64,000 nt of DNA from Planctomycetota bacterium (GTDB taxonomy: Bacteria; Planctomycetota; UBA1135): contig JAJFFB010000010.1 in NCBI GenBank assembly GCA_021776925.1, positions 1 through 64,000 on the forward strand, written 5' to 3'. Below are positions 9,751 through 13,673 of the stretch, piece by piece. The position numbers and the translations under genes were made by a program. How positions within the stretch are numbered: the first letter of the stretch is position 1; every line of letters begins with the position of its first letter. The notes beneath the pieces were generated by a model. The model did not search any database, had not been told where the DNA came from, and worked only from the letters and a program-made list of their open reading frames with translations.

Positions 9751-10056
<306 letters not shown>

Positions 10057-10160
10057 GAGGGTACGCAACGCGAGCCCCGCCTCCTCTATCCGCCGCGCCG
10101 AAGGCTGTTTGGCGCGGTTAGGTCCAGATTCCGCAGGGCTGTCCCGAATTCGGGCCAAGT

Positions 10161-10184: not shown

Positions 10185-10188
<4 letters not shown>
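10161..10188 (-). promoter_or_regulatory. Putative sigma70-type promoter for the S10 operon: TTGACG-N16-TAGAAT
   Basis: Reverse complement of attcta(10161-10166)...cgtcaa(10183-10188); about 100 nt upstream of rpsJ. Confidence 0.6.
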
Positions 10189-12266
<2,078 letters not shown>

Positions 12267-12335: not shown

Positions 12336-12788
12336 CTACGAGGCGAGCAGGGCGGCGTTCAGGCGCAGGTATTCTTCGGCCCAGCGGTATTCGTGCAGCA
12401 GGGTGTCATCGCGCTGGCCGAGCAGCGCACACGCGGCGTGCAAAGCCTCGATGCTGGCCAGGCCGGCGGCCGGATCCTGGAACAGGTTGGAGCGCCGCGG
12501 ATAGGCGCTGGTCAGACCCGCTGGCAGGGCACGGCGGTGCAGGCGGCCGTGGACCGAACGCAGCACCCGCGGCAGATCCCGCCAAGAGGAGTCGACCAAC
12601 AGCAGCGGCCGGCCGGCGTCGGCCTGGCTCAGCGGCTCGCCCTCGGGGTGCAGCAGAGTGACCTCTCCTACCTCGACGATGTCGCCGATGGCGCAGTGGA
12701 TCCAGCGCAACTGCAGATCACTACGCTGGCGCAGCGGTGTCAGCGAACACTTGCGCGGCGACTCCTTGTTGAGTCGCAGCAGGACCAA
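12336..12788 (-). CDS. Tsr3/DTW (TDD) superfamily protein, putative rRNA/tRNA aminocarboxypropyltransferase-like; start codon uncertain (TTG 12788 proposed)
   Basis: LVLLRLNKESPRKCSLTPLR...LLHPEGEPLSQADAGRPLLLVDSSWRDLPRVLR...RRALPAGLTSAYPRRSNLFQDPAAGLASIEALHAACALLG...LLHEYRWAEEYLRLNAALL resembles Tsr3/DUF367 signatures (DCSW, LP.L.A.NP, S..EAL, L...FKWG..FL.LN). Confidence 0.65.
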   Translation of the reverse strand: MVLLRLNKESPRKCSLTPLRQRSDLQLRWIHCAIGDIVEVGEVTLLHPEGEPLSQADAGRPLLLVDSSWRDLPRVLRSVHGRLHRRALPAGLTSAYPRRSNLFQDPAAGLASIEALHAACALLGQRDDTLLHEYRWAEEYLRLNAALLAS

Positions 12789-12807
12789 TTCGATCCGCGT
12801 GGTGGGC

Positions 12808-13281
12808 TTACCAGGCGAAATGGCTGTACGCCTTGTTCGCGTCGGCCATCTTGTGCACGTTTTCCTTCCACTGCACCGACGTGCCTGTGTTGTTGCAGGC
12901 ATCGATGAACTCAGAGGAGAGACGGCGGGCCATCGGCATGCCTTTTTTCTTGCGCGCGTTGTTGATCAGCCAACGAATCGCCAAAGCCTGGGCGCGCTTG
13001 GGCGTGACCTCGCGCGGCACTTGATAGTTGGAACCACCGACGCGCTTGGAGCGCACTTCGACGCTCGGACGGACGTTTTCGAGCGCGGTGACGAAGACCT
13101 GCTCGGGGGGCACGTCGGTCAGCTTCTTCGAGGCCATTTCACAGGCGTCGTAGAAAATGTCCATGGCGACGGACTTCTTGCCGCCGTCCATGATCTGGTT
13201 GATGAACTTGGTCGCCACCATCGATCCGAAGCGCGGATCGGGCATCTGGAACTTGGCGGTGGATTTGAAGCTACGCGGCAT
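12808..13281 (-). CDS. rpsG: 30S ribosomal protein S7
   Basis: MPRSFKSTAKFQMPDPRFGSMVATKFINQIMDGGKKSVA. Confidence 0.97.
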   Translation of the reverse strand: MPRSFKSTAKFQMPDPRFGSMVATKFINQIMDGGKKSVAMDIFYDACEMASKKLTDVPPEQVFVTALENVRPSVEVRSKRVGGSNYQVPREVTPKRAQALAIRWLINNARKKKGMPMARRLSSEFIDACNNTGTSVQWKENVHKMADANKAYSHFAW

Positions 13282-13304: not shown

Positions 13305-13673
13305 TCAGCTACGCCGGGCGCCATATTTGGAGCGGGACTGTTTGCGGTCATCGACGCCAGCACAGTCAAGAGTGCCACGGATGACGTGATAGCGCACGCC
13401 AGGCAAGTCACGCACGCGGCCGCCGCGGACCAGGACGATCGAGTGCTCCTGCAGGTTGTGGCCCTCGCCGCCGATGTAGGCGGTGACTTCCTTGCCGTTG
13501 GACAGACGCACCCGGGCCACCTTGCGCAGCGCCGAGTTCGGCTTCTTCGGGGTCATGGTCTTGACCTGGGTGCAGACGCCGCGCTTCTGCGGGCACTTGT
13601 CCAGGACAGGGCTCTTCGACTTCTTCCGGATGGGCTTGCGGCCCTTGCGGACGAGTTGGTTGATGGTTGGCAT
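13305..13673 (-). CDS. rpsL: 30S ribosomal protein S12
   Basis: [55 protein letters not shown]. Confidence 0.98.

What the first reader, a model, noticed from the sequence alone, without database searches (positions are those of the whole stretch)
12336..12808. Tsr3/DTW (TDD)-superfamily ORF embedded in the str operon between rpsG and fusA
Seen: a minus-strand ORF fills the rpsG-fusA gap and carries KESPRKCSLTPLR, LSQADAGRPLLLVDSSW, RRALPAGLTSAYPRRS, GLASIEALHAACALLG and LLHEYRWAEEYLRLNAALL. Established: Tsr3 (DUF367) installs the acp group on the hypermodified small-subunit rRNA base in eukaryotes and archaea (equivalent to E. coli 16S position 966); DTW proteins (TapT) make acp3U in tRNA. 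Inference: this could be a bacterial rRNA acp-transferase co-transcribed with ribosomal proteins, possibly modifying the helix-31 loop that bacteria usually methylate with RsmD/RsmB.
Basis: partly seen in the sequence, partly recalled or inferred. Interest (0 to 1): 0.72.

Follow-up and report, generated by a model that had tools for sequence, protein, structure and literature searches.

The report
Tsr3-type RNA-modification gene in str operon
The small gene squeezed between two core ribosome genes in this planctomycete bacterium really is a bacterial cousin of Tsr3, the enzyme that adds a large amino-acid-like group to ribosomal RNA in archaea and eukaryotes, but the base that Tsr3 normally modifies does not exist in this bacterium's ribosome, so what it modifies is an open and testable question.

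Summary
The minus-strand ORF ending at 12336 codes for a ~150-residue protein under purifying selection. It belongs to the TDD/SPOUT superfamily and is closest to Tsr3: Pfam Ribo_biogen_C is above cut-off, a profile hits the PDB Tsr3 5apg at E 1.8e-12, and the AlphaFold2 model's only significant Foldseek hits are Tsr3 structures. The organism is a planctomycete. The family's own profile finds the gene in 59 of 61 relatives and in 93 of 294 planctomycete genomes. In 50 of 80 public loci it lies exactly between rpsG and fusA on the same strand.

The site inference fails. The genome's 16S, and all other family-bearing 16S genes readable at h31, have G at E. coli position 966, and an RsmD-like methyltransferase is present in all 61 relatives. 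So 966 cannot be its substrate. No other rRNA uridine separates carriers from non-carriers. The gene is not a stand-in for the tRNA enzyme TapT, because the two co-occur.

This is probably the 'pc1599' family named by Burroughs and Aravind in 2014, whose function I found tested nowhere. Best reading: a SAM-dependent aminocarboxypropyl transferase acting on a uridine other than 966, most likely in the small subunit. The chemistry is well supported; the target is not.

The parts
12336..12788 (-). Tsr3-type (TDD/SPOUT) protein, probable CDS from TTG 12788 to stop 12336-12338; start codon uncertain (frame open to 12965)
12582..12593 (-). codons for the D-S-S-W catalytic/SAM-binding motif (D-X-S/T-W of the superfamily); coordinates approximate to within a codon or two
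   Evidence: D and W invariant in 44 sequences; role taken from PMC7026641
12808..13281 (-). rpsG (uS7), immediately upstream, stop codon just ahead of the Tsr3-type frame
13305..13673 (-). rpsL (uS12)
10185..12266 (-). fusA, a divergent EF-G that lacks both conserved domain IV loop motifs
9751..10158 (-). rpsJ (uS10), next gene downstream

Best explanation
The ORF encodes a planctomycete Tsr3-type aminocarboxypropyl (acp) transferase, most likely of the pc1599 family. Inferred mechanism: the SPOUT-like fold binds SAM in the Tsr3 manner, with the conserved W of DxSW placing the acp side chain in the active site. The conserved D deprotonates N3 of a uridine in RNA, and the acp group is transferred with release of 5'-methylthioadenosine, giving acp3U. 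The substrate cannot be 16S position 966, which is G here. The position in the rpsL-rpsG-X-fusA-rpsJ operon makes a uridine of ribosomal RNA, probably of the small subunit during assembly, the leading candidate. Shown: family, fold, conserved motif, conserved operon position, absence of U966. Inferred: acp chemistry. Weakly inferred: rRNA as target.
For: Profile and fold place it with Tsr3 (Foldseek 5apg E 2.1e-8, TapT 9kz5 only 0.057; model pLDDT 90). D and W invariant across 44 sequences. Same-strand position between rpsG and fusA kept in 50 of 80 public loci although many of these proteins are only ~45-70% identical. Small, no zinc-finger N-terminal extension, unlike TapT. Found together with TapT-type genes rather than instead of them (27 of 93 carriers against 33 of 201 non-carriers, counted by hand), so it is not a stand-in for TapT.
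Against: NCBIfam Tsr3/DUF367 equivalog cut-offs are far from met (42.7 vs 152; 25.9 vs 300 bits). The canonical Tsr3 target is absent. No rRNA column is U in carriers and non-U in non-carriers. Outside the home order the gene has no ribosomal neighbours, so the operon link could be local. No enzymatic evidence exists for this family.
Confidence: 0.5

Rival explanations
1. It is a tRNA acp transferase (acp3U47 or acp3U20) with a Tsr3-like core, i.e. a different enzyme doing TapT-like work.
For: The bacterial TDD member tested in the papers read acts on tRNA (PMC7026641, PMC6895100). This genome and the 25 others of its family lack a DTW/TapT gene, and a tRNA-Ile in the rRNA operon keeps the G46-U47-C48 context.
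Against: TapT and this family co-occur in 27 genomes, so it is not a simple substitute. It lacks the N-terminal zinc-binding region that TapT uses. The fold is nearer Tsr3 than TapT. The operon position points to the ribosome.
Confidence: 0.25
2. It modifies helix 31 of 16S rRNA at position 966 as Tsr3 does.
For: Closest characterised relatives do this.
Against: Position 966 is G in this genome and in all family-bearing 16S genes readable at h31; in G007, G013, G042 and G056 the 16S and the gene lie on one contig and in G263 on one complete chromosome, so mis-binning is not the reason. RsmD-like protein in 61 of 61 relatives. The h31 loop of this genome has no U at all.
Confidence: 0.02
3. It modifies a 23S rRNA uridine, for instance near N3-modified sites such as Psi1915 of helix 69, perhaps where RlmH is missing.
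For: acp goes to N3. RsmE (m3U1498) is present in a carrier, so the 16S N3 site is already taken. No RlmH was seen in 1.69 Mb of about 2.3 Mb of carrier G020.
Against: The RlmH absence is inconclusive: 73% coverage, a single E. coli query, and RsfS, a commonly conserved gene, was not found either. Its operon neighbour is a small-subunit gene.
Confidence: 0.13
4. It acts on a protein, for example an acp-type modification of the neighbouring divergent EF-G or uS7, or it has lost activity and serves as an assembly factor.
For: Conserved adjacency to rpsG and fusA; the EF-G is unusual in domain IV; acp transfer to a protein is known from diphthamide (named in PMC6895100).
Against: Every superfamily member characterised in the papers read modifies RNA; catalytic D and W are invariant, so loss of activity is unlikely. 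The gene also exists where it is not next to fusA.
Confidence: 0.05

Closest known systems
pc1599 family of the TDD superfamily (Burroughs and Aravind 2014, PMC4275035)
   Same: Planctomycete/PVC distribution, TDD domain recovered by searches from archaeal TSR3, no DTW annotation
   Different: That paper predicted an RNase and does not, in the passages read, report the rpsG-fusA position or any target
Tsr3 (archaeal and eukaryotic SSU rRNA acp transferase; PDB 5apg, 5ap8)
   Same: Core fold, D-x-S-W motif, matching N-terminal hydroxyl residue (S for T19), R-x-LP, A-x-P and L-S/A-xEA motifs, length like the archaeal core
   Different: Bacterial; 20-27% identity in structure alignment; below Tsr3 equivalog cut-offs; the target base U966 is absent
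TapT / YfiP (DTW, DTWD2 type; PDB 9kz5)
   Same: Superfamily, inferred SAM-acp chemistry
   Different: No CxxC...CxC N-terminal region; weak fold match (E 0.057); only 3 of 28 family members touch the DTW profile; co-occurs with TapT-type genes

Membership tests
TDD superfamily (SPOUT-like acp transferases) | D/E-X-S/T-W motif | tested here: met
   DSSW in the window protein; D and W invariant in 44 sequences
TDD superfamily (SPOUT-like acp transferases) | Tsr3/TapT-type fold | tested here: met
   AF2 model pLDDT 90; the only Foldseek hits with E below 0.001 are four Tsr3 chains, TapT at rank 6
TDD superfamily (SPOUT-like acp transferases) | SAM-dependent acp transfer to uridine N3 | not testable with these tools
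   needs enzyme assay or MS
Tsr3 (16S/18S position-966-equivalent enzyme) | Pfam Ribo_biogen_C above gathering score | tested here: met
   34.9 bits vs 29.9; all 28 members of A2 match at E <= 0.01
Tsr3 (16S/18S position-966-equivalent enzyme) | NCBIfam Tsr3/DUF367 equivalog cut-off | tested here: not met
   42.7 vs 152 and 25.9 vs 300 bits
Tsr3 (16S/18S position-966-equivalent enzyme) | Uridine at the SSU helix-31 target position | tested here: not met
   G966 in own genome and in all carriers readable at h31
pc1599 family | TDD domain protein of PVC bacteria distinct from DTW | tested here: met
   Planctomycetota-wide plus Opitutia MAGs, few DTW hits
pc1599 family | Direct sequence similarity to pc1599 or the Planctomyces brasiliensis protein | not tested
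   those sequences are not in the collections used
TapT / DTWD2 | DTW profile above cut-off | tested here: not met
   no DTW hit for the window protein or its genome
TapT / DTWD2 | N-terminal CxxC...CxC zinc region | tested here: not met
   absent; defined in PMC7026641

The most novel reading that the evidence does not exclude
A Tsr3-type enzyme was retargeted in Planctomycetota to a different ribosomal RNA uridine, so that bacterial ribosomes carry an acp-modified uridine at a site not known to be acp-modified in any domain, with the gene fixed in the str operon for co-assembly with uS7.
Probability: 0.4. Interest if true: 0.75.

Novelty: new member of a known kind. Interest (0 to 1): 0.5.

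Why it matters
acp-modified rRNA is known from eukaryotes and archaea; E. coli rRNA has none (PMC7026641). A Tsr3-type enzyme kept in the ribosomal protein operon of a bacterial order whose ribosome lacks the Tsr3 target base makes a sharp question: what is modified, and does Tsr3 in archaea and eukaryotes descend from an enzyme with another site? Cultured planctomycetes that carry the gene (the Poly30 strain, Candidatus Uabimicrobium) make the answer a single LC-MS/MS experiment away.

Tried and rejected
1) Presence/absence by Pfam alone suggested that one related family (f5) lacks the gene and has TapT instead; the family's own profile found it in 59 of 61 genomes, so that complementarity was an artefact of low Pfam sensitivity. 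2) rRNA-wide comparison of carriers and non-carriers (59 16S, 62 23S): 140 16S and 222 23S columns are U in nearly all carriers, none is U in carriers only, so no target could be named; lineages are few and related. 3) Gene neighbours outside the home order: no consistent partner. 4) RsmE/RlmH test in 1.69 Mb of G020: RsmE present, RlmH not seen but inconclusive because RsfS was not seen either. 5) Viral contigs: no relatives. 6) The first 16S pattern search failed because I set the gap too short; the Rfam SSU search gave no usable answer. 7) The 2016 Tsr3 structure paper is not held, so RNA-binding residues could not be compared from the source.

Full report
What is there. Relatives begin about eight residues before the RLNKES motif; at that place this genome has ACG, so the true start is uncertain and TTG at 12788 (150 residues) is my best guess. 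Codon position 3 is much less conserved than positions 1 and 2 against relatives, so the frame is translated and constrained.

What family. Pfam Ribo_biogen_C matches at 34.9 bits (cut-off 29.9). The NCBIfam DUF367 model matches at E 5e-11, but well below its equivalog cut-off. The single sequence finds Tsr3 of Vulcanisaeta (5apg) in the PDB at E 3e-4; a profile of 28 relatives finds it at 1.8e-12 and Sulfolobus Tsr3 (5ap8) at 9e-6. An AlphaFold2 model from 44 aligned sequences (pLDDT 90, pTM 0.87) has only Tsr3 structures among its significant Foldseek hits; E. coli TapT comes sixth at E 0.057. The D and W of the D-x-S/T-W motif, to which catalysis and the special SAM binding are ascribed (PMC7026641), are invariant. 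TapT's N-terminal cysteine region is missing.

Where it occurs. Public relatives are almost all Planctomycetota, with a few Opitutia MAGs, the complete genome of planctomycete Poly30 and Candidatus Uabimicrobium amorphum. Pfam alone found the gene in 37 of 61 relatives; the family's own profile found it in 59 of 61 and in 93 of 294 genomes of the phylum, including 53 of its own order. Burroughs and Aravind (2014, PMC4275035) already named a PVC-wide TDD family, pc1599, found from archaeal TSR3 through a Planctomyces brasiliensis protein. The present gene very probably belongs there, although I could not align it with pc1599 itself. I found no paper that tests the function of that family.

Where it sits. 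Of 80 public loci, 50 have rpsG directly upstream and fusA directly downstream on the same strand, eleven more keep one of the two neighbours (five of these lack sequence on the other side) and 18 have neither adjacent; the last is cut off downstream. Because proteins in these loci are often only 45-70% identical, the order has been kept for long. Outside the home order the neighbours vary and are not ribosomal.

The helix-31 idea. The genome's own 16S gene reads TTCGAAGCAACGCGAA at helix 31, i.e. G966-C967 and no uridine in the loop. All family-bearing 16S genes readable at the site have G966, as do the non-carriers (one row, G110, was misaligned and left out). In G007, G013, G042 and G056 the 16S gene and the Tsr3-type gene are on the same contig and in G263 on one complete chromosome, so this is not a binning artefact. 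An RsmD-family protein is present in all 61 genomes. The specific inference of acp at 966 is therefore refuted, while the general one, an acp transferase for some RNA uridine, stands.

Which target. I compared 16S and 23S of carriers and non-carriers. No column is U in carriers and something else in non-carriers, so either the target uridine is universal or it is not in rRNA. TapT-type DTW genes occur in 27 of 93 carriers and 33 of 201 non-carriers (counted by hand; weak cross-hits to the Tsr3-type gene itself left out), so the family does not replace TapT. Known N3-modified rRNA uridines in bacteria are U1498 (RsmE) and Psi1915 (RlmH). RsmE is present in carrier G020; RlmH was not seen in 73% of that genome, but a commonly conserved control gene (RsfS) was not seen either.

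Mechanism proposed. Shown by sequence and model: fold, motif, conservation, location. Inferred from characterised relatives: SAM binding with the acp arm in the active site, D as base, product acp3U plus methylthioadenosine. Weakly inferred from the operon: the RNA is ribosomal and the step belongs to 30S assembly. I put the acp chemistry at about 0.8 and rRNA as substrate at about 0.5.

Novelty and interest. As a protein family this is a new member of a known kind. What is new here, as far as I could find, is the long-conserved str-operon position and the demonstration that the ribosome of these bacteria has no Tsr3 target base, which turns an annotation into a precise experiment.

Noticed in passing
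window 10185-12266 (-): The str-operon EF-G is divergent (39% identity to E. coli EF-G over the aligned part) and lacks both domain IV loop motifs (SGGRGQYGHV and HDVDSS) of E. coli EF-G; the same is true of the str-operon EF-G in the relatives examined. Possibly the recycling-type spdEFG2 of planctomycetes (PMC3150367), with a translocating EF-G elsewhere.
   Followed up: partly
L012:1290-1380 (genome G011): A perfect G+C-rich hairpin followed by a T run sits between rpsG and the start of the Tsr3-type gene, like an intrinsic terminator inside the operon; not present in the short gap of the window.
   Followed up: no
L079:10001-10438: The Tsr3-type gene lies between rpsG and fusA but on the opposite strand, an in-place inversion.
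   Followed up: no
L020 / L049 (genome G019): Here the Tsr3-type gene is followed directly by rpsJ, with fusA gone from the operon.
   Followed up: no
L238 (genome G081): A carrier with an unusual helix 31 sequence (TTTGATGATACGCGGAG), still G966 but C967 replaced by A.
   Followed up: no
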